Source: Cudoniella acicularis (taxonomy: Eukaryota > Ascomycota > Leotiomycetes > Helotiales > Helotiaceae). Taken from it: 64,000 bases of DNA. A program made the translations under genes and the position numbers. Shown here in pieces: positions 1 to 40,434 of this stretch; within the stretch, counting starts at the first letter, position 1, and each line of letters begins with the position of its first letter. The notes below the pieces were generated by a model that had not been told where the DNA came from, did no database searches, and saw only the letters and a program-made list of their open reading frames with translations. The DNA lies in NCBI GenBank assembly GCA_013054445.1, contig JAAMPI010000060.1:1-64000 (forward strand), written 5' to 3'.

Positions 1-539
1 CAGATGACCTACTGCGCAGCCACAGGTTCAAACCCCCAATCTTTCAACTCTCCGCCAAAACAAATATTCTCGAATTTTTCTCCTTGCTTCAACAATTTGT
101 TTACTACATCCAACACCTCATCACCTTGAATCCACGCAACTTTCAATTTGTCACTCAACCCAGCATCCTTAATCGCCTCTTCCACGGCCTTGGCCAACAT
201 TTCCGTATCGCTAGCTCCAGCATTGACTGCAAGTTTGATGCCCTTCTCGGCCAGCAAGGGCAAAGCTGGAGTGAGATTTGCCCTGAAAGAAGGGTCGTAG
301 AGTCCAGGTCGCTGCTCAGTGTCTCCTTTGGCTAGAATTGCCGATTTCGCGGCGCCATGCCATGACATAGTGCATTCTGACATCCAATCCCCGACAATTA
401 CATCTACATCGCACTGTGCCAGTGAGTGGATGGCGCGCTGTCTATCTGTGAATCCTCCTGATGCACCTGCAACCCGAATCGGGCGTTTGGCGGTGCCATT
501 GCCATTGGTATGACTGTTTGTGTGACCGTTTGTAGCCAT
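1..539 (-). CDS. AtuA/DUF1446-type protein, 5' part only (runs off left edge)
   Basis: The first exon starts at the ATG at 537-539 (MATNGHTNSHTNGNG) and continues to the window edge, about 176 residues. The stretch RPIRVAGASGGFTDRQRAIHS, followed by a VGDWMSE segment, matches the N-terminal part of DUF1446/AtuA proteins, named for acyclic terpene utilisation in Pseudomonas; fungal members are usually about 600 residues. A TAG at 9-11 would end the frame, but it lies inside GTAGGT, a good fungal 5' splice site, so the gene probably splices there and continues outside the window. An in-frame extension upstream to 671 is not conserved-looking and is probably 5' UTR. The exact reaction of this family is not established. 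Confidence 0.72.
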
Positions 540-1093
540 AGTGGATCGCGGTGAGGTTGAAATAGGACAGTGGTGCAAAAAGCTGAATGAAACACAACTA
601 GATCTCAGGAGTTTTCGAGGCCTTGAGCACCCAAGACAATAAATTTCGAAACCGTACAAGCTTAATAGCAATCAACTGCGTGCAGCGCTCCCCGCCAAAA
701 CGCTACTTACCGTTGATGCCGCATTTCGGTGAGCTTCCACTTTGGTCCCAAGAGCTCCCCAGATTCTTTCCGCAAAGTGGGTATGTTGTTGTCGGGAAAG
801 AGAGACCGACGGTTGACTCGGTTTTGGTGGGGTGCTTGACAGGGGCAATACGCTAATTTCCAGGCCGTGCTTTCAGCTGAAACTTGGAGAGCGGGGTAGT
901 TTTTGACGGGGTTCCTCCTGAATCAGTTCGCTAAATGTGAACGGGAATACTCGAGTCAGGCTCTCGATTTTCATTGCAAGTAACAAATTCTTGACGGAAG
1001 TCAGCACGCAGCGCATTTATGATTAGACAACAAATTATTCACATGCAAGCAAAATTGTATTATGCTACAGCCTTCCAACACTCTGAAGCATCG
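540..1093. other. Intergenic, upstream of the AtuA-type gene
   Basis: About 550 bases between the start of the AtuA-type gene and the 3' end of the alpha/beta hydrolase. It should contain the AtuA promoter and 5' UTR. I see no supported coding region, RNA gene or repeat. Confidence 0.5.
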
Positions 1094-2233
1094 TTATATC
1101 TTATTCGATCTCGTTGGCGAAAGAACGAAATCAAACCCTTTCTTCAAGTTTCTATTATACTCCGCAATCGGCTCTTTCAAGTGTTCTGACGGATATGCCC
1201 AAAACCAATGAGGATAACCTAGATATTCATCATATACTGTTGGAACACTAAAGTCGTTAGATTTAGAAGTGAAATAGAGGAGTAGTTTCATACCCGGCGC
1301 TCTCCAAAGCATCTCTCAACAACCTTCCGTCATCCCTCAAGGTATCTTGGCTAGAAACTGCTATATAAACTTTTGGAAGTTCCTTCAACTTTTTGTGAAG
1401 CAATGGCGAAACATATGGATCTTTCCCATCTGCTCCATACGCATCTATGTAGAATTTCGATTAGTTTGATATCCAGGTCCAATGTCCAGCAAAACTTACC
1501 AAAGAACATCTTCATCGCCTTTCCCGTGTTGATTGTGTGCTCATCATGCTCTGCATATGAGGTGTATTTCGACTTCAATTCTGCTGGAACCTCTGCAGGG
1601 TCAATTGTGACAGGGACAACGGCGACAACCCCTTTCAAAGTATCTCCCCTTCCCTCGTCAATCACTTTCAGCGCCACAGCGAGAGCCAAATTTGCTCCAG
1701 CTGAGGTTCCAAAGGTAAAGGCCTGGTTTGGTGTTGTTTTTAAAGATGCCGAGTTTTTGAGTGCCCATTCGTACCCAATGAAACAGTCATCGAAGGGTAT
1801 GGGATATGGATTGGCAGGAGCCAGTCTATAGTCGACTGAAACGACAACCACACCTGCTTCTTTAGAAACATATCGGCACTGACCATCTTCACCCTCCAAA
1901 TCTCCCATTGCCCATCCTCCTCCGTGGAAGAACAAACATACTGGCTTGTTTCCAGAATAATTCGGTGGTGTATAAATCCGAACCTTGAGTCCGGGTGATA
2001 TCTCCTTGTCTTCGGTTTTGACTGATGCATCAGGTGCTGGAAATGTGAGTTTGGAAACTAGAAGGCCTCCAAATTCAAGGTATTGATCATTTGCCTTCTC
2101 AATAGGACCATAAAGAAGGAATCTTTGCCCTATTTGCTTCTCAAACTGTGAAGTGTTAGTTACCAAGTCCATTGATAGATAATTCAACACTTACCGCCAG
2201 CCACGGCTCCGCAAAACCTTCTGAATCACCCAT
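1094..2233 (-). CDS. Alpha/beta hydrolase fold-3 (HSL family) esterase, 4 exons
   Basis: Exons 2195-2233, 1500-2145, 1294-1444 and 1094-1247 sum to 990 nt and give a 329-residue protein; introns are 46-55 nt with canonical ends. It starts MGDSEGFAEPWLA. The HGGG oxyanion-hole motif (in FFHGGGWAMGD) and the nucleophile elbow GTSAG (in FTFGTSAGAN) are typical of the hormone-sensitive-lipase family. The catalytic Asp is probably in SSQDTLRDD and the His in the C-terminal YPHWFW segment. No signal peptide is seen, so it is probably intracellular. It would hydrolyse small esters or lactones; the substrate is unknown. It is divergent from the acyl-CoA dehydrogenase, sharing a 298-bp promoter. Confidence 0.88.
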
Positions 2234-2531
2234 TTTCTAGTAATTTAGAGTTTCAAAAATATGATTTAATGACAATATCTTCCCCGGACTTTTTAAGCAT
2301 GTATAAATCTGTGATTTTACGGGGTGGTCGTCACGTGTTTTTAAGTGGTCCCGGGTAAGGACTCCCGGCCCCGCTTTTCCACCAGACCTTGCTGCTCTGG
2401 ACCTCAACCGCGACCTCGGCCATGCAGAAAACACCACAGCCGATGACCGACGACGAGCACTCAAAATCGTGACTTAAGACAATTAACAATTCACAATTTC
2501 AAACTTTGTACACGACATAAAGCTCTTCAAC
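2234..2531. promoter_or_regulatory. Shared divergent promoter region (hydrolase / acyl-CoA dehydrogenase)
   Basis: 298 bases separate two divergently transcribed start codons, so both promoters must lie here. It includes a CACGTG E-box-like hexamer near 2332 (in gtcacgtgttt). No other element is recognisable. Confidence 0.5.
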
Positions 2532-3945
2532 ATGTCGCAATTAGACGGTCCCGCATTCCACCGGATCCCACCTTGGGTGAAGGCCAAGCTCTCACCAATC
2601 GCAATCGAGAAAATTCAAGCAGTCTATGACTTTGTGGAAACGGAATGTATCCCAGCAGATCCTATAATGAAAGCTCAGATTGCGGAGGTAGGAAAGAGAT
2701 GGACCACTCAACCTTTGATGCATGAGTTGAGGGAGAAGGCGAAGGCCAGAGGGTTATTCAATTTATTTTTACCGAATAATTTCAAGGAGAGTCCGGGTTT
2801 AACGAATTTGGAATATTCTTGCTGTGCAGAAATTATGGGTAGAGTATACTGGGCTCAACAAGTGAGTAAATTGGGATTAGAAATGATCAGATTGCTAATT
2901 CACGTGGCAGACGATGAATTGTCACGCTCCAGAGACTGGAAACATCGAGTTACTAGCAAAATACTGTACCCCAGAACAAAAAAAGAAATGGCTTCAACCG
3001 CTTCTTGATGGAACCGCTTCTTCAGCATATTCCATGACAGAGCCAGATGTGGCTTCTTCAGACGCCACGCAAATTGGTTGCAGAATCACCCGGGAAGGTA
3101 ACGAATATGTCATCAACGGCCGAAAGCTCTACGGCAACTGCATCTGGAACTCTGAAAACAAATTTTACATTCTCATGGGGTGTTCAGATCCGGATAACCC
3201 AAACAAATGGGCTCGCCATTCTACAGTAATTGTTCCAACCAACACCCCAGGCATCACCCAAGTCAGGAATCTCACTATTATGGGTTATGATCATGCTCCG
3301 GAAGGTCACGGAGAGTATATTTACAAGAATGTCAGAGTTCCTGTTGATAATATAATTCTTGGCGAGGGAAGAGCCTTTGAAATTGCTCAAGGACGACTGG
3401 GACCTGGACGAATTCATCATTGCATGAGGTTGATCGGACAATGCGAGCGTGCGTACGAACTCGCTCTCATCCGCTGCATTGACAAGCGCAAGACACCTCG
3501 CGGACGCTCCATTGGATCTTTTGATTCAAATATTGAGCGAATCGCTCAAATGAGACTTGAAATTGATCAAGGACGTCAGGTGGTGCTGAATGCCGCTGAT
3601 ACCATGGATATTCATGGCAACAAAGCGGGTCGATATGCCATTGCTCAGAGCAAGATTTTGATCCCGAATATGGCAACCAGGGTCATTGACGAGTGTATGC
3701 AATTGTATGGTGGACAAGGGTTGACTCAACATACTCCTTTGCCAGAGATGTGGGCATATGCAAGATTTGTGAGAATTGCCGATGGGCCGGATAGTGCACA
3801 CAGACATCAGGTTGGAAGAGATGAATTGAAAACTGCGGAAAAGTATGTGGAAAGGAATAAAGAATATCAGAGGAGGTATAAGGCTCTGGCGGAAAAAATG
3901 GGTCAGGAGTATGTGACTTTCTGGGGCGTCACTCCTGAGATATAG
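2532..3945 (+). CDS. Acyl-CoA dehydrogenase (ACAD10/11-like), 2 exons
   Basis: Exons 2532-2861 and 2911-3945 (intron 49 nt, GTGAGT...GCAG) encode 454 residues. It would carry out FAD-dependent alpha,beta-dehydrogenation of an acyl-CoA, in mitochondria or peroxisomes. The segment SMTEPDVASSDAT is the FAD/substrate-loop signature. QLYGGQGLTQHTPLPEMWAYAR followed by RIADGPDSAH is the C-terminal FAD-binding signature. Length and the N-terminal FVETECIPAD pattern fit the long-chain ACAD10/11-like group common in fungi. A role in degrading branched or cyclic acyl-CoAs is possible given the BVMO, esterase and AtuA-type neighbours, but that is inference. Confidence 0.9.
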
Positions 3946-4458
3946 ATATTGATTCATAGCTCTGTCCTACTGTAAATTCTTCGATTATTTCCCCCCACTT
4001 CTTGTCGCAGTGCTTGTGAAACATAAGCTATTTAATTGTTTAATGAGTTTTGATTCCAAATCTAAAGTGAGATTTAGATAGCTATCTAAGAAAAATATGT
4101 GAATAGTTCTCATTTGCCTTTAACTTTGTGAGCGAAATGTGAAGCGCTTAAAATTCAGGAACGGTTTAGCAATGAAAGCCTAAACTCTAGGCGGTGGCTC
4201 CCTACAATTTAGGGCGCCGACCCTGCAACTTGCTGAAAATTGGCGAATGGTGCCGAAACTTTTCGGCCCGCTAAAACGCCCGGCTCCCTTCCCTATAATT
4301 CAACGCACGAAACCTGTAATTCGCATCATGATAGCGGGCAAATATCAAAGCTTTCCATTGTAGTTTCTGAGCTTTACAATTATGATGGGAAATATACAAT
4401 ACTCAAACGGTTTGTTAAATGATTGAAAACTACAGGCATCCAAATACTCAAAAACCAA
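3946..4458. other. Convergent intergenic spacer
   Basis: About 510 bases between the 3' ends of the acyl-CoA dehydrogenase and the PRISE reductase. It should hold both 3' UTRs. No coding signal, RNA or repeat is seen. Confidence 0.5.
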
Positions 4459-5795
4459 CTATGGAATAATCTTCGCTTTCTTAAACCGATCAAAGGCAGT
4501 CCACCATGCACCCTTCACATCCGTCTCCTCCTTCGCCGATCCCCACGCTTTATGCACTTTATTCATATCCAAATCACGATCAAAATCAAACATTGTCATA
4601 ATGAAATATTGGAACCCGCCAAAACTCCTCTCGTTTCCAACCCTGCCCGTTTGCAATCCCTTTTCTTGCTCAAGCTTCTTCCATTCAGCCAAATGATCTT
4701 CGATGTATTTTCCCGGCTGGGGTCCTGAGCCACCTAGTGGTGGAGGCGTGCCTTTGAGGCCGAAATATTCGCAGATAATGGGCCATTTTAGGGACCAGGA
4801 ACCCGGGATTGCATTATCTGCGGTGTTGAATCGCTCGCCATGTGAGACTTCCGGGTGTAAACTTGCGTGGATGGAGAATTTGGCAACTAGGTCTTGGCTG
4901 GAATCGTTGCTCTTGATTACCCAGCTCTTCTCATTTCCAGGGAAGGCACATCCTGCACCTTTTCCTTCAACTGCGGCGTATAGAGATAGGTAGGTTGCGA
5001 GTGTTTGTGCAAGACAGTAAATGTTGTTGTTTGGGACGAATCCAACAATCATATCAGGCATGACTTCGCAGTATTTCCATGGTTTTCCTTTGCAAGACTT
5101 GGCGAGGTGGTCAACTTGTGCGTAGTAAAATATTTGAGATGCATGTGGCTCTGGTAGGCGCCCAATGGATTCGGCGAGTGGTGGGGTGAAGGGCATATCG
5201 TGAAGAAGGTGAACTCCATATGCCTGGTTTTGTCAGTCATCAAGCATTTTCAGCTACAAGCACTTCCTTACTTTTGTTCCTGTGGGTAAAACAACAAATT
5301 TGAGATTGGGGGCAAGATGTTCTACCGCCTGGACAGCCCGATCTAGAAGCTTGACATTAATCGCGATTTCCTTGTCGGGGTCGAGGTCCATAATGTATGC
5401 TGGAAACTGTTAGATATTATCCTTACTTGAAGCCTCAGCTTCTCACCAAAGAAGTACACATGGGTAACAGTCTCAATTCCTTTCACCTTCTCTTTCATCT
5501 CAGCCTCCAATCCTTCCTGGCCTTTGCTTGTGAGCAAATCCAAGCCGCTCACCACCTGGAGCTTGTCGGATGCGGGCCATAGTGCTGCTTCGGCTGTCAA
5601 TGGACGATTTGTGAGAGCAGTAACTTGTGAAAATGTAGTTTCGTCGGGATAACCACTGATCAGGGCATTCGTAATTGCCCATCCAGTGATTCCACTCGCG
5701 CCTTTAAAGATGTCAGTAAATCCCAGTTTTTCAAAGAGACTGACGAGTCGTGACATACCAAATATCAAGGCGTGATTGCCGCCTATGCTACCCAT
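4459..5795 (-). CDS. PRISE-type NADPH-dependent enone reductase / epimerase-like SDR, 4 exons
   Basis: The start is MGSIGGNHALIFG at 5795; the first intron (GTATGT...AAAG) splits the Rossmann glycine motif, which splices to GASGITGWA. Further introns lie near 5400-5450 and 5230-5275. The protein is about 394 residues, the usual size for progesterone 5-beta-reductase/iridoid-synthase-like (PRISE) enzymes, which reduce 1,4-enones with NADPH. Family marks include VVLPTGTKAYG (catalytic Lys), IFYYAQVDHL (catalytic Tyr), FPGNEKSWVIKSNDSSQDLVA and SWSLKWPIICEYFGLKG. It is cytosolic with no membrane segment. The natural substrate of fungal members is mostly unknown. Confidence 0.85.
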
Positions 5796-7087
5796 TTTCA
5801 AGATATCTAAAACTTTCGGAATTACTCGAATTGTTGGGGCGGATTTCAAAGAATGAGATGTTCCTCCACATGTTCTTTCGACTTGTAGCCTCTTCCTCGA
5901 GGCTGGAATGCGGGGTGAAGGCCCACGTTACCGAATCTGATTCGTGCTTTTTTCGATAGAGGGATTTGTGGTGAACGTTGAAGCCTCAAAATCTGGAGAA
6001 CTTCTCCCGAATGGTCTGAGTCTTCGGGCTTGTTCCCGAAACTTTTCGGATCCACTACCAGCCTCGTGCTAACTGTGCGGAATTATGCACCAGGTGAGAC
6101 TGCACGGGGTCATGAGCAGTTTCAGGAAGGTTGTGCGAGGAAGATTGCTAGCTTCAACTTTGCATGAGAAACGTGGGGAGTCGCTTGATTCAGGGAGACT
6201 TAATAGCGGGGTAACTTTGACTCGCTAACACTTCAAGCCAAGCGAGGCCAAAAATGGGCGTGTTTTAGCGAATTTAGTAGCTGGATGTGCTTCCCGGCGT
6301 TCCGCATTTTCTTTTTATGGGGATCGCCACCTCCACGTCAACCTCACGGCCAAGATGCTGACCCAGTGCTACCCCACCACCAGCACTAGCACCCCGGGTT
6401 GATTCGTGTGGAAACCATTATCCTTTGCTAGCTGTGCAAGCCTCCTGCACCAAGGATAAGCCGTTGGGATATTCCCGGGCCCGTGCCCGTGCCCAAAATG
6501 GACACCGAGGCGTGGCTTGCTGGAAAAGCCAGTGCTGTTGGCAATTCCGCGGCACCCTTCTCAATTGACTCGAGAATTCTTCCATCCAAGACTCAAGCAA
6601 AAGTTTGGGTGTGGACATTCTTATCAACTACTTCGATTCGGCCACGGCAGATTCCCACACTTCCCCAAGGCGGGAAAATTGGAAGAGCGTCGGGTCCGAT
6701 GTTCTTGTTTCCTTTGTTCCCCACGCGAAGCACATGTAAGAATTGACTGCCATGTGCTCACTGCTTACCCCACAATTCCCCAGAAGCCTCAATGCTTTCT
6801 TGACTCCTCTAGTCCGCCCCATACCTGTTGACTGAGTCAAGTAGAGCTCTACCCCAGATCCAGGCCCACCCTGAGCCTTATCTGCGATTCAGATTGGTTC
6901 CAGCCTTCCACTTTCCTGCTCCTGGCAAATAGTATCCGTCAATCTCCAAGGGAGCTTGCGCAAAATGGCCTGACAGCTCCTGAAAATTGTTTTTCTTCAA
7001 GGTCCAGCTTGAAGCTATATCAAACCATCTCGTGCATTTTTTTTTCTCTTCCTCCAACTCTTATTTATTGTTTCTCAGATACCCAAA
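5796..7087. other. Long divergent intergenic region (PRISE reductase / BVMO)
   Basis: About 1.3 kb between two divergent start codons. Open frames here are short, overlapping on both strands and without recognisable domains. A pyrimidine-rich stretch just before 7088 looks like the BVMO 5' leader. No RNA gene or repeat is identified. Confidence 0.45.
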
Positions 7088-8978
7088 ATGGCAGATTTCG
7101 TTATTGGAACCAATACATCCCCAGATGCCCACGCCGAAAGGCGATTGGACGGGCCAATTCATGCCGAGAGGCATATGAACATCATTTGCGTTGGCGCCGG
7201 AGCTTCAGGATTGCTTATGGCCTACAAACTTCAGAAGCATTTCAAGAATTACACTTTGGCTGTGTACGAGAAAAACCCAGAGGTGTCGGGGACGTGGTTT
7301 GAAAACAGATATCCCGGGTAAGTCGAATCCAGCATGCTGCATTACCGCCAACTAATTGATATGACAGGTGCGCTTGTGACGTTCCTTCACACAATTACAC
7401 CTGGAGCTTCGAGCCAAAACTTGATTGGTCAGGAGTTTATGCAAGCAGCAAGGAGATCTACGCCTATTTTGAGGCCTTCACTAAGAAATACCACCTCAAA
7501 GACTACATCAAAACCGAGCATCAAGTTGTGGGAGCGTACTGGGACAATGCGACCTCCGGGTATGATGTGAAGATAAAGGACATCAAAGCGGGGACAGAAA
7601 TCAGCCACCATTGCGATATTCTCATTAACGCATCTGGGATCCTGAACAACTGGAGGTGGCCAGCAATTCCAGGCTTGGACAAGTACAAGGGAACTCTACT
7701 TCACACAGCAAATTGGGATGACAGTGTTGATCTTTCTGGAAAGCACGTGGGTCTGATTGGGAATGGGTACGTATTTTGATCCACAAATTGAACGTGTTCT
7801 GATATTGCAGATCTTCCGGCATCCAAGTGCTTCCGAAAATCCAACCCATCACGAGCAAAGTCACAACCTTTATCCGTGAGCCGACCTGGGTTTCTCCTGT
7901 CCAAGGACTTGAGCAGCACATCTACTCCGAGCAGGAGAAGCGTGAATTCGCAAACAAGCCAGGCGTTTTGACCGAGTACCGAAAGGGCATCGAGCGAGGT
8001 CTAAACGGCCAATTCGGCATTTTCCTTCGAGATACCAAACCCAATAATGATACCCATGACTACATGATGGCCCAAATGAAAGAGAAGCTGCAAAATCAAT
8101 ACCTTGAAGAGAGGTTGATTCCAAAGTGGTCAGTTGGCTGCAGACGTTTAACTCCTGGTGTTGGCTATCTCGAGAGCTTGGGGAAAGACAATGTTGAAGT
8201 CGTCTATGGCGAGATCAACGCAGTGACAGAAAAGGGGTGTCTTTGCGACAATGGAAAAGAATATCCTGTCGATGTTCTGATTTGCGCAACTGGTTTCGAC
8301 ACAACTTTCAAACCTCGTTTCCCTCTTATCGGTCCCAATGGCCAAAATTTGCAAGATCAATGGAAGGAGGAAGCTCAATCATATCTCGGAATGGCTGCGG
8401 ATGGTTTCCCCAACTACCTGATTTTCCTCGGACCTAACTCGCCAATTGGCAATGGTCCCGTACTTTCAGCCATTGAGGCACAGGCAGACTACATGTGCAA
8501 GCTGATTGACCGTTATCAAACACGCAACATTCGCACTTTTTCTCCCAAAAAAGCGGCCATTACCGATTTCATCGCTCACAAAGATCGATTCATGACCAAG
8601 TCAGTGTGGGCCGACCCCTGCCGCTCGTGGTACAAGAATCGACCAGATGGTCCCATTACCGCTCTCTGGCCTGGATCAACACTCCATTACATTGAGGCAC
8701 TCCTTGAGCTGCAAATTGAAGATTGGGCTGTTGAATACAGCGGGAACAGATTCGCGTGGTTAGGAAACGGTTACAGTCAGACAGAGTTGGATCCAACTGC
8801 TGATTGGGGATACTATATTCGAGAGGTGGATGATGATAGGCCTCTATCAACTGGTGGAAAGAGGAAGTTGATAAGCAAGAGTGGAACTATGTCGAGTAAT
8901 GTTGGGATTGATTTTTCAGGGAAGAAGGCAGCGGAAAAAGAGCAGACACCGAGAAAGGAAGAAAGGGCATATTTGTAA
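7088..8978 (+). CDS. Flavin-containing monooxygenase, Baeyer-Villiger type, 3 exons
   Basis: Exons 7088-7317, 7368-7766 and 7811-8978 encode 598 residues. Features in order: FAD-binding GAGASG near residue 37; GTWFENRYPG, the BVMO GTWxxNxYPG signature; a YKGTLLHTANWDD segment in the position of the BVMO fingerprint; NADPH-binding GNGSSG split by the second intron; and ATGFDTTF near the C-terminal third. It would convert a ketone to an ester or lactone with FAD, NADPH and O2. Many fungal homologues act in secondary metabolism, others in catabolism. The next annotated material downstream is a degraded transposon, so this is the last intact gene of the left block. Confidence 0.9.
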
Positions 8979-8989
8979 AGCAGTGAAGC

Positions 8990-10260
8990 TTAGTCTTAGA
9001 GACATGTATATATTTCTATTTAAGTCAAGTTTAAACGCTATCTAATAATTCTTCTTTTAAATCTTAAATAAAACCTATATATAATATAATCAAGGACTTA
9101 TTATATAAATATTTTAATATTATAAAGTTTAAAACTTTATAATTAAATATTATTTTAAATTTTTAAATTTTAAAACTTAATTTTTTTAAAATATAATATT
9201 TTATAATTAGTTTCAAGTTTATTTATAAATAAATAATAATATATTATAGACTTTTATTAGTTATAAGTCTTAAATAAACTAATATATAAACTTATATTTT
9301 TAATATATTATAAAGAGGAGGCGTTAGTAGATAAAAAAGTCACGTGTAAAAGGAAAATATTAAGTTATAGAACTAATCTCTAGCTTCGAGGGGTCTAGAG
9401 AAGCCCTATTTTTATTAGCTATCTGCTACCGATAGGGGTCCGATACTAAGGCCTAATAATAATAGTAATCAATAGTATTATCTAACATCCCGTGCCACGT
9501 ATTAAGTATCTAGAAGTATATAATACCTTTTAAAGCCTTTTATTCTAAATTTATCTAGGAACATATATTCTAGTTAGTCGTTTATTTTAAGAAACCTACT
9601 ATACCTCTTACTTTTAATAATATAATACTCGACTATATCTAGCTCTTCGTTAATAATACTAATATTGTTATCGATCTCTATATATATAATACAAATATTA
9701 TAATAGCGGCTAAAAAGGTTATAAAAGTTATAATATAGAATCTAAGTTTCGAGTTAGATTATATATAAGAGGTTAAGTTAATAGACGATCTAGCTATACG
9801 ATTCTAGCTCCAGGTAGAGATCGAGAAGCGAGCTAAGTAAGAGTTCGTAATTAAGGTTATAGTTAGAACGGACGAGGTATATAATATATAGCCTAGTTCG
9901 CCTCTTAATCGATACTAATAGAGAGCTAGAATAATATACTAGCTATACGCGAAGTTATAATCTAATCTACAAGAGAGTCGATACTATCGAGATAAGTTAT
10001 CCGGAGAAAGATAAATAAGAGCGCTACGATAGTTATAAAGACCTTAAGATCTTTATTATACTTCCAGCCTAGCTAAATAACTATATATTAACCTACTAAA
10101 CGACTATCTAATAAAAAATAATAAACATCTAGCGTCGCTTTTTTATATAAAATAACAAGTTAAGAAACATAGCCTTTAACGGTTAGACTATTTTATTATC
10201 TCTCTCCGATATATATTATACTATTCTATAGATAAGGCTATTAAGTAATAAGATTAAGAT
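8990..10260. mobile_element. RIP-degraded transposon relic, family not assignable
   Basis: About 1.27 kb of very AT-rich sequence dominated by TA-rich words and stops in all frames, starting right after the BVMO stop. Islands of higher complexity (for example 9770-9860 and 9990-10100) read as charged, stop-riddled fragments that could be a decayed gag or transposase. Dense TpA is what RIP (CpA to TpA) leaves behind. It ends near 10260, where base composition changes abruptly and the truncated UstYa-like fragment begins. I could not identify terminal repeats. Confidence 0.65.
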
Positions 10261-10261
10261 T

Positions 10262-10425
10262 ATAGAAAAAGGAACCCCGGCCGAGATTCTTAACAGAAGA
10301 GAGAAGAAGGTATAGTCTATGCTGAATGCAGCTTCATCCTCTATGGAGCTGCGCTCAACGTCCTTTTCATCCTCTCTTGCTTCAGAAGCAACCAGAGAGT
10401 AAGGAGTCTGGAACCCAGGAAGCAT
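10262..10425 (-). pseudogene. Truncated N-terminal fragment, possibly a second UstYa-type protein
   Basis: The minus-strand frame beginning MLPGFQTPYSLV at 10425 gives an acidic segment (EAREDEKDVERSSIEDE) followed by hydrophobic sequence (FFSLLLRISAGVPF). It runs into the AT-rich relic at about 10260 and loses all homologous-looking sequence there. An acidic N-terminus followed by one membrane segment is how UstYa/DUF3328 proteins begin, and a UstYa gene lies 2.7 kb away. No HxxHC motif survives, so family membership is a guess. It could equally be another membrane protein cut by a transposon. Confidence 0.3.
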
Positions 10426-11871
10426 CTTGGTAAGCACTTCAATAATTTGAAAAGATTGACTAGTAGTAATAACTTGATTGAAAGTGATAAAACCCTTTGG
10501 CTTTTTCAAGGGCGTAGGATTAATACAAGACAACAAGCCCAAAATCGGAAGAAGTGGAGCGCCATCCACTCCAAACCAGATTTCATGTTAAATCCGGCTG
10601 ATCATGCTGCATACAGTGATTCTTGGACCCTTAACTCTTTACGTAGTAGAACTCTAGGGTAATGCAACAATCTGCGATTGTGACTCCGTAATGCATAACC
10701 CTCAACTCACTTAAGCGCCTGTAACCTGATCCCCTACCAGTTGCCTTGATAGGCTAGAATGATTGAAGTGAAGATGCAATGTGGTAATGCGGCGGTATCC
10801 CTCGTTGCGGGGCCCTCCTATGCGTTGTTTCTCAGGTTGATTGTCTCTTTTTCTATCTACCTGGAAAGGATTCTTCATGGATAATCAAAAGCGAGAATCT
10901 TCCCACCCTCCTAGTCAATTCTTGCGGTGAAGATCAAGACCAACGGTCACATTGAGATTCAATGTAGTGAGATAAGTTGTTGCCTTGCTGGCACAGTGCT
11001 TTGACCTTTACGAACACGCTATCGTATACGACCAACACCAACTGCATATGGCCCCTGCCTTGATTTGCATATTGCCTTTACAAATCATGGTTATACACTA
11101 TGAATGAATATGCAGGAAGAGTCTGATAAGGTAGAGATAGCAAAGTTTGAATGAAGAAAAGAGGCCAGGGGATCTCTCTGCAGTCATACTTCAAGGTTAT
11201 GATTCCCAGCCCCTCTTCCATGCAGCATGCTACCCTTAGTATATATTACCAATGTAGCAATTGAACGAGCATTGCAAATTCCAATCCTCTTCAGCTTCTA
11301 TTTTTAAGGATAAAGTGCTTGTGTAGAGTTGCAAGCCTTCTTGAGGAGTTGAATAACTCGAATCCTTGTGCTTTGCTTTGAGTCTTTGACTCAAGCGTCC
11401 CGATATAACAATGTTTTAATGCTAGTAAGATTTTCAAACCTAAATCAGAAAGGAGTATAATCATATCTACTTATTCCAAACTTCCAAGCTCTGTTACGTT
11501 ACATCACATGCCCGTTTTCCTCGAATGTTGAGATACTCTATCCTCAGCATACCCTTTACCAGAAGTCACGGACCTTTTCGTAGCATGTGAGATATGCAAA
11601 AGCCAGTTCCAGAGTGTTCAGGGGTAGTTAGTAAGGTTACTGTAAAAATACTCTGCTTACGAAAAAGAAAACGGATTAAAATTCTGATATTACGGAGAGG
11701 GGTTACGGAGAGTTTCGTGAAAGTCCAAATCATTAAGGTCAACGTACTGAATCTATATAGTAGTTCAAGACCCTTTAGTTACAGCTACTTCAATTCATAG
11801 TTTTCGGTTGAACATCATCACCAGCATCGCCTCATCTTAAGAATAGACGGATCTTCGTTTCCATCTTTACC
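10426..11871 (+). promoter_or_regulatory. Region upstream of the RiPP precursor, with TATA-like box
   Basis: About 1.4 kb with no convincing coding frame. A TATATAG sequence at 11754-11760 lies about 112 bases before the precursor ATG. It is followed by a C/A-rich leader (CATCATCACC and similar), a typical fungal promoter-leader arrangement. The rest may include decayed genes, but I could not name any. Confidence 0.4.
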
Positions 11872-12206
11872 ATGACTCGAATCATCAGAGCTGTGTTCAT
11901 CAGCACTCTGCTTGCTTTCTCACCACCGCACCAATTGCACACGGAGATGACCACGGAGTTGACAGATGTTCTTTAACCAATATTCACCCACCTCCCATCA
12001 AGTTCCCTGGAGATACAGACCCGGACGTCATCATCAAAAGGACGAATATCTACCCTCCACCAATCAAGTTTCCAGGCGACACTGATCCAGATGTGATCAC
12101 CAGGAGGACCAACATCTACCCCCCGCCCATCAAGTTCCCAGGCGACACTGACCCGGATGTGATCATGAAGCGGGAAAGCTACCTGCCCGAAGACAGAGGC
12201 CTTTGA
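11872..12206 (+). CDS. Kex2-processed repeat RiPP precursor (UstA/PhomA/GigA-like), with a frameshift
   Basis: The ATG at 11872 opens MTRIIRAVFISTLLAF, a signal-peptide-like start. In that frame translation stops at TAA 11974-11976, but a neighbouring frame carries a secreted-precursor-like stretch and then three tandem 22-residue repeats, each ending in a dibasic pair (KR, RR, KR), a short tail and TGA at 12204-12206. The two parts fit if one base is missing near 11920, so the gene is either recently broken or misassembled; no intron can explain it. Precursors of this layout are cut by Kex2 in the secretory path and cyclised by UstYa oxidases (ustiloxin, phomopsin, epichloecyclin families). 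A UstYa gene lies 0.9 kb downstream. The product is unknown. Confidence 0.72.
11976..12173 (+). repeat. Three tandem 66-bp core-peptide repeats
   Basis: Units are 11976-12041, 12042-12107 and 12108-12173, each 22 codons. Copies 2 and 3 share the 19-residue core TNIYPPPIKFPGDTDPDVI, and copy 1 has His for Tyr at position 4. Residues 20-22 are IKR, TRR and MKR, giving Kex2 sites. Between copies 1 and 2 the first 19 codons differ at 14 synonymous positions and only one amino-acid-changing position. The peptide sequence has therefore been conserved while the DNA drifted. Confidence 0.9.
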
Positions 12207-13110
12207 GTTGCAGAAGTAGTAGAAGAAACTTCTTTGGTCATGAGGTAAGTTGCTTAAATTATCAATGAATCCACGCTCATCAACCTATAGCTACGTCGCT
12301 CTCAGTGAAACAGGATTTGGGATGTCAGATATTTGTAGGGGCTGTTGGTCAGGAAATCATGGGGAATTGTCTTTGCACTTTTTTTTCTGGGGAAGCTTTG
12401 AGGCTGAGAATCAGCTTTTTGGGTGATTTACTTTAGCTGAATTTAGTCACTCTTTATTGCAAAGTTCTTAAATATTCCTGACTATAAAATTGCATAATTT
12501 TAAATTCTCCTAGATGTTACTCAATAACTTTACTAATGCCACCCGGCCCAAAACAGTAATTAAAGTTTGTGTACTCTCGAATATGGATAATATGGTACTG
12601 TTTTCCGTATGCCCACCTAAGGGATCTGTTTGTAGAGGAGACTGGGGAGTGAACGCAGCGGTATTAAATCCCGCAAAAGATCGTCATGCATGCGGCACTG
12701 TTGCCAAGCCTTCCCCGCATAGAAATCTGATGTCAAGAAGAATATAGGTCAGTGCGGGAAGGATGCATGAAAAGGTGAAGAATCGACATATAGCTGCGGT
12801 GACAGCAATCTCACGTCTGACACGCATTGCAGGTAGCCCCACTGGTTCTACGATATATTCCCCAAGAAGAGAAGGTTCCTTGAGCCCAAACACATGAAAT
12901 TGCCCCGGTAGTATTTGGTCCTTAAACCCTTATTAGCACTTTCATTGTGCCGATCTACTTCTCGATAGGGAAAGTCATGTGGTATGCTTTTGCGCTCGTG
13001 AGTAGATTTAGCCGGTCATAAAGTATCTGGGTCTATCTATAAAGGCCACGCACGTAATCTAAACTTTATCTACTTTTCACTTGCCAAATTGCTGCCTCCC
13101 TCTCGAAACC
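12207..13110 (+). promoter_or_regulatory. Spacer between RiPP precursor and UstYa gene, with UstYa promoter
   Basis: About 900 bases. Just after the precursor stop, a GTAAGT at about 12244 and a CTATAG about 50 bases later could bound a 3' UTR intron. Near 13037 a CTATAAAGG sequence lies about 75 bases before the UstYa ATG and is a good TATA box. An open frame at 12514-12747 shows no domain and I do not call it. Confidence 0.4.
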
Positions 13111-13870
13111 ATGGAAAAATCAGGAGAACAGATACCACGTGATTCATTTCAAAATCTAGACTTCGATATGGAAGAGAACAAAGGCACGACAGAGCTGGAA
13201 AATTTACTGGAAGATCATGAAATCTTGGTACTAAAGCGGAAATCGAGAAGAATATTAACCACCCGGAACATTTTTTTGCTGCAAATCATTAAAGTAATAA
13301 AGCTAACCAGTCCCGCCGTTATTTGTAGTTACATATCGCATGATAACTTTCGCCGAGCTCTATGAAAGTGGTGCACCCTTAGACTCGGTGGACTTTTTCG
13401 AAGACGCGTATCCCGCAAACCTGGCTGTATTTCACCAAGTTCATTGCTTTGTGAGTGCTGTCATTTTGTCACACAAAACTCAGGCTTTGCTGATAAGAGA
13501 TCAATGGTAGATGTTCCTTTGGCAGCACACTTGGCAGGATTATTATGGCGAAAATAATAATATTCCCAAAATATTTCAGGTTGAAGCTGATAAGTTGCAT
13601 GATCATCTTGGTGAGTTTCCAATTATCATTTCAAGATGCTGTGAGACCGATATTGTAAATATACTTACACTACAGCTAGATCACTGTGCTGATATGCTGC
13701 GACAAGCTTTCATATGTAATCCTGACACAACATCTCTCGTTTACACCTTTCCAAAAGCAGAGCCGCATCACATACCAGGACAGGGGGCTGTGTTGAACCA
13801 TGGTTTGCCGCGAAGATGCAGGAAGTATGAAGAAATCGTGAAATGGGGGAAGGAGAATGAGTGGAACTAG
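13111..13870 (+). CDS. UstYa-family (DUF3328) oxidase, possibly partly degraded at its 5' end
   Basis: The start MEKSGEQIPRDS leads into an acidic region and RRILTTRNIFLLQI, the usual pre-membrane segment. After an uncertain junction near 13290-13350 the frame gives YPANLAVFHQVHC (13433-13447 encode HQVHC). Intron 13451-13510 leads to WQDYY; intron 13611-13679 splices to HLDHCADMLRQAF, so both UstYa HxxHC copper-binding motifs are present, with intact C-terminal sequence to TAG at 13870. UstYa proteins are membrane-anchored and cyclise or oxidise RiPP cores. The membrane helix and the roughly 80 residues usual before the first HxxHC look shortened, so the 5' third may be damaged. It serves the adjacent precursor by position. 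Confidence 0.7.
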
Positions 13871-40156: not shown

Positions 40157-40434
40157 TAACGAGCCTACTGATAAAAGTCTGGGTTTTTAGGGTATTTTAC
40201 TAGAAAATCAAAATNAAAAANTCATAAANTTTNNAAAGNTAGTAAATAGAAAGTATCCTTGACTATTTTAAATCNTAATTCCTGNAGTTTATATAATAAA
40301 TAGTACTNGTTATTTTATANTANTCAAGTGATCGCGATNAGTTTGATTTTTAGAAGCCTAAGGGCGGGGTCGCGAANCCTNAAAATNGCTTAATANNCCC
40401 CAGAAAACCCAGACTTTTGTCAGCAGGCTCGTTA
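40157..40434. mobile_element. 278-bp TIR element (MITE) containing scattered ambiguous bases
   Basis: The left end TAACGAGCCTACTGATAAAA and the right end (reverse complement TAACGAGCCTGCTGACAAAA) are terminal inverted repeats that continue through GTCTGGGTTTT. The outermost TA on each side fits a Tc1/mariner target duplication. The interior is AT-rich, and all N characters noticed in the window fall between 40215 and 40397. That pattern suggests a foldback structure that was hard to sequence, or reads from several copies merged into one consensus. Confidence 0.82.

What the first reader, a model, noticed from the sequence alone, without database searches (positions are those of the whole stretch)
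11872..12206. A candidate new RiPP precursor with three Kex2-bounded repeats
The sequence shows a signal-peptide-like start and three tandem 22-residue units ending KR, RR and KR. This is the layout of ustiloxin, phomopsin and epichloecyclin precursors. The core TNIYPPPIKFPGDTDPDVI is unusually long, proline-rich and acidic, and I do not recognise it from known cores, so the product class may be undescribed. Family assignment follows from architecture plus the nearby UstYa gene.
Basis: partly seen in the sequence, partly recalled or inferred. Interest (0 to 1): 0.88.

Follow-up and report, generated by a model that had tools for sequence, protein, structure and literature searches.

The report
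Fungal repeat-peptide precursor, possibly damaged copy
A fungus carries a gene with three near-identical peptide units flanked by protease cut sites, beside an enzyme gene of the kind that cross-links such peptides; it is one of several such genes in this fungus, and both genes look incomplete in this assembly.

Summary
The array is real. Three tandem 22-residue units (11976-12173, +) end in KR, RR and KR. Pairs differ at 12-18 of 66 bases but only 2-3 of 22 residues, and only in this frame: it is protein-coding and was kept by selection. A UstYa (PF11807) gene starts about 0.9 kb downstream on the same strand.

The ATG with the signal-like stretch (11872) is in a different frame from the repeats, and no well-formed intron joins it to all three units. 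The UstYa gene keeps both HxxHC copper motifs and a possible membrane helix, but the luminal part between them was not found. Both genes look damaged as assembled; sequencing error is not excluded.

In-genome controls make the layout ordinary: about 89 UstYa gene-like groups, and Kex2-type repeat arrays beside UstYa on 8 of 22 other UstYa contigs examined.

Best reading: a UstYa-linked Kex2-processed repeat protein (dikaritin-type RiPP precursor) with its own proline-rich core, perhaps inactive. New member of a known kind. Other fungi could not be searched.

The parts
11754..11760 (+). TATA-like box about 115 nt before ATG 11872
   Evidence: which found three TATA-like sites in 11501-13200 and ran no chance control
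11872..11976 (+). ATG with hydrophobic, signal-peptide-like stretch; own frame, 34 codons plus stop; out of frame with the repeats
   Evidence: best 11-residue hydropathy 2.17
11847..12206 (+). stop-to-stop frame holding the repeats (119 codons plus stop TGA); no ATG ahead of the repeats; holds a T-A-P-I-A-H segment just before the array
11976..12041 (+). unit 1, TNIHPPPIKFPGDTDPDVIIKR
12042..12107 (+). unit 2, TNIYPPPIKFPGDTDPDVITRR
12108..12173 (+). unit 3, TNIYPPPIKFPGDTDPDVIMKR
12174..12206 (+). C-terminal tail of ten residues and stop
13111..13870 (+). UstYa (PF11807/DUF3328) gene, probable start ATG 13111, stop 13868-13870; profile positions 1-118 of 220 not recognised
13270..13326 (+). 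possible membrane helix of UstYa (19-residue hydropathy 1.84; control helices in two sisters 1.57 and 1.68)
13433..13447 (+). first HxxHC motif, HQVHC
13451..13510 (+). intron, GTGAGT donor, TGGTAG acceptor with branch-like CTGAT
13611..13679 (+). intron, GTGAGT donor, AGCTAG acceptor (no good branch-site match in my scan)
13604..13687 (+). second HxxHC motif, HLDHC, formed across the second intron

Best explanation
The locus is a UstYa-linked Kex2-processed repeat protein (KEP) gene, i.e. a dikaritin-type RiPP precursor, with its tailoring-enzyme gene next door. Proposed working: a signal peptide sends the precursor into the ER; Kex2 in the Golgi cuts after KR, RR and KR and frees up to three near-identical peptides; carboxypeptidases trim the basic ends; the neighbouring UstYa copper enzyme oxidatively cross-links the core, most likely at the Tyr of units 2 and 3. 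Shown here: the coding array, its dibasic sites, the adjacent UstYa gene with both HxxHC motifs, a kexin-type P domain elsewhere in the genome. Inferred: secretion, cleavage, trimming, cross-linking, product. As assembled, the signal-like start and the repeats are in different frames and the luminal N-terminal part of UstYa is not recognisable, so this copy is either recently damaged or mis-sequenced; I would not call it active.
For: Coding frame of the array: 7 of 66 residues differ across unit pairs against 14-38 of 63-66 in the five other frames. Kex2-type repeats absent from simulated sequence (0 of 60). UstYa at 13394-13858, 63.7 bits, both HxxHC motifs. Same layout on 8 of 22 other UstYa contigs, with similar silent divergence between units in the 7 measured. 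Kexin P domain once in the genome. Published surveys: UstYa genes peak next to KEP genes (PMC7329392 section 7).
Against: No continuous signal-plus-array frame. UstYa matches only profile positions 119-220. Unit 1 lacks Tyr. No tyrosinase match on the contig, though asperipin-type clusters need none (recalled). UstYa genes also occur in non-RiPP pathways (PMC12048977 section 22). In 14 of 22 other UstYa contigs examined no array was found. No relatives or transcripts could be tested.
Confidence: 0.75

Rival explanations
1. Relic: the same kind of locus, but truly dead in this strain. The precursor lost its frame within the signal peptide and UstYa lost its luminal part. (A state of the best explanation, not exclusive with it.)
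For: Two independent defects in adjacent genes. The closest UstYa paralogue in the genome (C1370) has a segment ahead of the first motif with no counterpart here.
Against: The array itself shows no lesion: open frame, all dibasic sites kept, strong silent-site bias, so any loss is recent. UstYa keeps both copper motifs. A draft assembly of 1836 contigs can hold errors.
Confidence: 0.4
2. Intact and active: the frame break is an assembly error, or an intron that my rules miss joins leader and array; the UstYa N-terminal part is merely diverged or split by further introns.
For: Introns near the signal peptide are found in sister arrays: a convincing one in 3 of 5 out-of-frame sister leaders (L023, L041, L042), and for L039 my procedure found none, so it can miss them. 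For the window, one search also lists weak joins that keep the signal-like stretch: a 38-nt GC-AG join (11928-11965) to all three units, and an 83-nt GT-AG join (11958-12040) that swallows unit 1 and leaves units 2 and 3, the two with Tyr.
Against: Those joins have poor splice sites. The 83-nt one would make unit 1 non-coding, yet unit 1 is conserved as protein (15 of 18 and 12 of 14 differences at third positions). The highest 11-residue hydropathy among all 56 GT-AG joins is 1.66, against 2.17 for the unspliced start. In sisters the signal stretch runs straight into A-[A/T]-P; here these two pieces lie in different frames next to each other.
Confidence: 0.4
3. A KEP that releases linear signalling or pheromone-like peptides; the UstYa gene next door is a coincidence or serves something else.
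For: 78% of surveyed KEPs have no UstYa gene near (PMC7329392 abstract). UstYa genes are numerous here (about 89 groups). Aromatic residue placement differs from 7 of 8 sisters.
Against: By my estimate 89 groups in 53.2 Mb put one within a given 3 kb about 0.5% of the time. Surveyed pheromone KEPs almost never have UstYa beside them (three exceptions; PMC7329392 abstract).
Confidence: 0.12
4. The repeat is not a sense-strand protein at all: chance repeat, or an antisense gene.
For: An antisense ORF of 103 codons also covers the repeats.
Against: The frame of that antisense ORF changes 37 of 66 residues among unit pairs against 7 of 66 in the sense frame; the most conserved antisense frame (14 of 63) has a stop in every unit.
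Confidence: 0.02

Closest known systems
Dikaritins / ustiloxin-type RiPPs (ustiloxin, phomopsin, asperipin-2a)
   Same: Repeat units bounded by Kex2 sites, UstYa/DUF3328 gene next door with both HxxHC motifs.
   Different: Unit of 22 residues against typically 13, 14 and 8 (PMC7329392 passages). Tyr at position 4 of a proline-rich unit, absent in unit 1. No tyrosinase match on the contig. Leader and array in different frames; UstYa incomplete.
KEPs in general (Kex2-processed repeat proteins)
   Same: Three or more near-identical units separated by KR/RR; unit size in the commonest class (PMC6339444 section 6).
   Different: A signal peptide in the same frame is not shown.
The eight other UstYa-linked arrays of this genome (L023, L029, L032, L036, L039, L040, L041, L042)
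   Same: UstYa neighbour, units bounded by [KR]R, high silent divergence (7 measured), hydrophobic start followed by A-[A/T]-P (A-A-P in frame in 6 of 8).
   Different: No core sequence shared; tblastn with the window array finds only itself in 53.2 Mb, though only one candidate passed the first look. Tyr/Trp late in the unit in 7 of 8, early here.
CctR and other DUF3328 copper enzymes
   Same: Both HxxHC motifs, possible single membrane helix.
   Different: Luminal segment between helix and first motif not recognised here; CctR facts from passages of PMC12435403.

Membership tests
Kex2-processed repeat protein (KEP) | At least three similar units separated by KR/RR sites (criterion of PMC6339444, section 24) | tested here: met
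   Three units, KR, RR, KR. That pipeline also asks for at least four cleavage fragments; the array gives four counting the tail.
Kex2-processed repeat protein (KEP) | N-terminal signal peptide on the same protein | tested here: not met
   Signal-like stretch present but in another frame as assembled; no signal-peptide predictor was available.
Dikaritin / UstYa-linked RiPP | UstYa (DUF3328) gene close by | tested here: met
   PF11807 at 13394-13858, 63.7 bits, same strand.
Dikaritin / UstYa-linked RiPP | Complete UstYa protein with helix, luminal domain and two HxxHC motifs | tested here: inconclusive
   Both motifs and a possible helix present; profile positions 1-118 not recognised.
Dikaritin / UstYa-linked RiPP | Tyr (or another aromatic) in the core as cross-link site | tested here: inconclusive
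   Tyr in units 2 and 3, His in unit 1; 65.6% of repeated sequences of UstYa-linked KEPs contain Tyr (PMC7329392 section 7).
Dikaritin / UstYa-linked RiPP | Cross-linked (cyclic) peptide product | not testable with these tools
   Needs LC-MS.
Dikaritin / UstYa-linked RiPP | Conserved linkage of array and UstYa in related fungi | not testable with these tools
   Protein database switched off; no other fungal genome held.

The most novel reading that the evidence does not exclude
The array encodes a distinct UstYa-linked peptide type: the cross-linked core is a proline-rich N-terminal segment (TNIYPPPIKFP) followed by the acidic part, with the aromatic residue early in the unit, unlike 7 of the 8 other UstYa-linked units seen in this genome. 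Ring and cross-link would then differ from known dikaritins, and the frame break would be an assembly error or private to this strain.
Probability: 0.15. Interest if true: 0.55.

Novelty: new member of a known kind. Interest (0 to 1): 0.35.

Why it matters
If intact copies exist in relatives, it adds a proline-rich core to what UstYa copper enzymes may accept. If the lesions are real, it is a snapshot of a RiPP locus being lost in a genome rich in UstYa genes: about 89 gene-like groups in a six-frame search here, against 9399 profile counts in 1461 strains in a survey of annotated proteins, about 6 per strain (PMC7329392 section 7; the two measures are not identical). The genome, with at least nine array loci (the window plus eight), is a better object of study than this one array.

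Tried and rejected
Considered and rejected: chance repeat; antisense gene; a well-formed intron between leader and array; a second copy in the genome (the 26-nt pattern also hit once). Pfam and NCBIfam gave nothing for the array. No solved structure resembles a sister UstYa by sequence (0 of 177635 at E up to 1). Five fragments of the core gave 0 papers in the held library; supplements and sequence databases were not covered. A search aimed at dikaritin pseudogenes listed ten papers, all with 0 occurrences of 'dikaritin'. Searches listed many unrelated papers. Five papers were opened and read in part (abstract, sections or passages), none whole.

Led nowhere or mended: the first substitution script stopped on a zero division and was redone in all six frames. 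In one search the frames cut from L002, L010 and L017 are wrong-strand or wrong-frame, so their rows mean nothing; L003, L004, L006 and L016 carry that result. An earlier count said that no join starts at ATG 11872; that is wrong: one search shows one GT-AG join to unit 1 (71 nt), which removes most of the hydrophobic stretch. The C1370 locus (L028) holds the nearest UstYa relative (41% identity, query residues 52-116) and a tyrosinase, but the scan saw no array in its first 6.5 kb.

Limits of the controls: the 22 UstYa contigs were the 19 with the best profile scores plus three of my choice (C1580, C931, C1607), of 61 other contigs with a match; regions were at most 10 kb each and some were cut at contig ends; the array of L029 runs off its contig end. 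The scanner sees only [KR]R sites, and the eight hits are those with at least 12 matched residues. Units were located by peptide motifs, which favours conserved units and lowers pN for the sisters; L029 was not measured. Fifteen control regions away from UstYa could not be fetched, so real-DNA controls are only the rest of the window and the short kexin locus L046. The intron test was convincing for 3 of 5 sister leaders (L023, L041, L042), weak for L040, and found none for L039. One search found 56 joins and printed the 25 best by hydropathy and 15 best by splice score; the remaining rows were not printed. In one search only single GT-AG introns of 40 nt or more were tried for the UstYa start (52 models). 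Only 30 selected ORFs of the window were put to Pfam (plus pieces), so the gene list of the window is partial.

Full report
WHAT IS THERE. The window is the first 64 kb of a 78-kb contig in a 53.2-Mb genome of 1836 contigs. UstYa genes, short introns and a Pyr4-type cyclase mark it as a filamentous fungus (inference); no name is given. At 11976-12173 (+) three 66-nt units stand head to tail. They translate to TNI[H/Y]PPPIKFPGDTDPDVI[I/T/M][K/R]R, each ending in KR or RR. Ten more residues follow, then a stop at 12204-12206.

MORE THAN CHANCE. Pairs of units differ at 18, 14 and 12 of 66 bases but at only 3, 2 and 2 of 22 residues; for each pair, 0 of 20000 random placements of those differences changed so few residues. 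The sense frame has pS 0.80 and pN 0.049. The other five frames change 14 to 38 of 63 to 66 residues, and the most conserved of them has a stop in every unit. A scan for repeats ending in [KR]R found nothing else in the window and nothing in 60 Markov-simulated 64-kb sequences. The array is a protein-coding repeat kept by selection.

NOT ONE OPEN FRAME. ATG 11872 does begin a hydrophobic, signal-like stretch (best 11-residue mean 2.17), but that frame stops at 11974-11976. The repeats lie in another frame that has no ATG ahead of them. In the repeat frame a T-A-P-I-A-H segment lies just before the array. In the sister precursors of this genome the hydrophobic stretch runs into such a segment: A-A-P is visible in frame in 6 of 8, L039 has A-A-T-P, and L023 shows it only in a modelled splice. 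In the window the signal-like part is thus split over two frames within the leader.

INTRONS TESTED. Among 56 GT-AG joins into the repeat frame the highest 11-residue hydropathy is 1.66. From ATG 11872 one GT-AG join (71 nt) reaches unit 1, and it removes most of the hydrophobic stretch. With looser rules (GC donors, 30 nt or more, acceptors inside unit 1) 16 joins exist; two kinds keep the hydrophobic stretch with usable units, a 38-nt GC-AG join to all three units and an 83-nt GT-AG join that swallows unit 1. Their splice sites are poor, and unit 1 is conserved as protein, which speaks against its being intron. The procedure itself is imperfect: it gave a convincing intron for 3 of 5 sister leaders that are out of frame with, or cut off from, their arrays. 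Whether the break is real or a sequencing error cannot be decided here. No N lies near it; all 17 N lie at 40215-40397.

THE NEIGHBOURING ENZYME. PF11807 (UstYa/DUF3328) matches at 13394-13858 with 63.7 bits, over profile positions 119-220 of 220. The gene probably starts at ATG 13111, with a TATAAA at 13038, and ends at 13868-13870. Two introns with GTGAGT donors, 13451-13510 and 13611-13679, leave HQVHC and HLDHC, the two HxxHC motifs. In CctR these motifs form a binuclear copper site needed for activity, in a dimer behind one membrane helix (PMC12435403, passages). A possible membrane helix is present in the 13111 frame, and its surroundings align weakly with the N-terminal tail and helix of L016 (E 0.23). 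The luminal part between helix and first motif was not found: no match by tblastn with sister proteins or by Pfam. In 52 single-intron models at most 94 residues precede the motif, against about 190 in L003 and L016. The closest paralogue, on C1370, keeps a segment ahead of the motif with no counterpart here. So UstYa is also incomplete, or that part has diverged or lies in exons I did not model.

IN-GENOME CONTROLS. The genome holds 121 PF11807 stretches at E up to 0.001, 120 of them over the cut-off, which group into 88-89 gene-like sets on 62 contigs. I examined up to 10 kb around UstYa on 22 of the 61 other contigs. Eight carry an array of units bounded by [KR]R (L023, L029, L032, L036, L039, L040, L041, L042); fourteen do not. 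In the seven measured, unit pairs show pS 0.58-1.03 and pN 0-0.137, like the window (motif-located units, so pN is biased low). No core is shared; the window array matches only itself in the genome. A kexin-type P domain occurs once. No tyrosinase match lies on this contig.

HOW IT WOULD WORK. By analogy with ustiloxin-type pathways (PMC7329392, passages and section 7): ER entry, Kex2 cleavage, trimming, oxidative cross-linking by UstYa. Shown here: array, sites, enzyme motifs, kexin domain. Inferred: everything biochemical. Tyr sits at position 4 of the unit, whereas Tyr/Trp sits late in seven of eight sister units (one representative unit each); acids sit late here and also in L032. If real, the early aromatic in a proline-rich unit is the one structural oddity. 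Unit 1 has His there.

COMPARISON. KEPs are common: 7878 in 1345 of 1461 strains, 22% UstYa-linked, 2560 without any homologue (PMC7329392 abstract). Units of 9-24 residues are the commonest class in Dikarya, save in yeast-like Basidiomycota (PMC6339444 section 6). Nine dikaritin clusters were listed in Venturia inaequalis (PMC9632046, passages). UstYa genes also serve non-RiPP pathways (PMC12048977 section 22), so a UstYa neighbour alone is not proof. An unfamiliar core is expected, not a sign of a new class.

VERDICT. Repeats and UstYa neighbour are real; the single ORF is not. It is a new member of a known kind, possibly a relic. The claim of a new product class is not supported, though not excluded.

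Noticed in passing
window 43594-63851: Genes that look like a polyketide-terpenoid (meroterpenoid) cluster: FAD-binding oxidase, UbiA prenyltransferase, MFS transporter, amidohydrolase, one 1852-codon PKS frame (KS-AT-DH-KR-ACP), Pyr4-type terpene cyclase, P450, SDR.
   Followed up: partly
L023, L029, L032, L036, L039, L040, L041, L042: Eight further UstYa-linked Kex2-type repeat arrays with unrelated cores, e.g. NEADVDSIQWKR and STDGPSIAIPWTKNYGEYEEKR.
   Followed up: partly
genome G000: UstYa expansion: 121 PF11807 stretches, 88-89 gene-like groups on 62 contigs.
   Followed up: partly
window 9000-10499: AT-rich island (GC 0.21-0.34) with dinucleotide ratios of the kind left by repeat-induced point mutation (TpA/ApT 1.29-1.49; (CpA+TpG)/(ApC+GpT) 0.12-0.81; thresholds recalled), 1.4 kb before the precursor.
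   Followed up: partly
L028 (C1370:1-6500): The closest UstYa paralogue of the window's gene lies about 2 kb from a tyrosinase (C1370:3370-4025), as in ustiloxin-type clusters; no array seen by the scan there.
   Followed up: partly
L023, L032, L036, L039, L042 and the window array: Units within one array are nearly identical in protein yet strongly diverged at silent sites (pS 0.63-1.03 in these); possibly a way to avoid DNA-level repeat silencing (speculation).
   Followed up: no
window 1-9000: AtuA-like, alpha/beta hydrolase, acyl-CoA dehydrogenase, PRISE-type reductase and FMO-type monooxygenase genes side by side: possibly a degradation or tailoring cluster.
   Followed up: no
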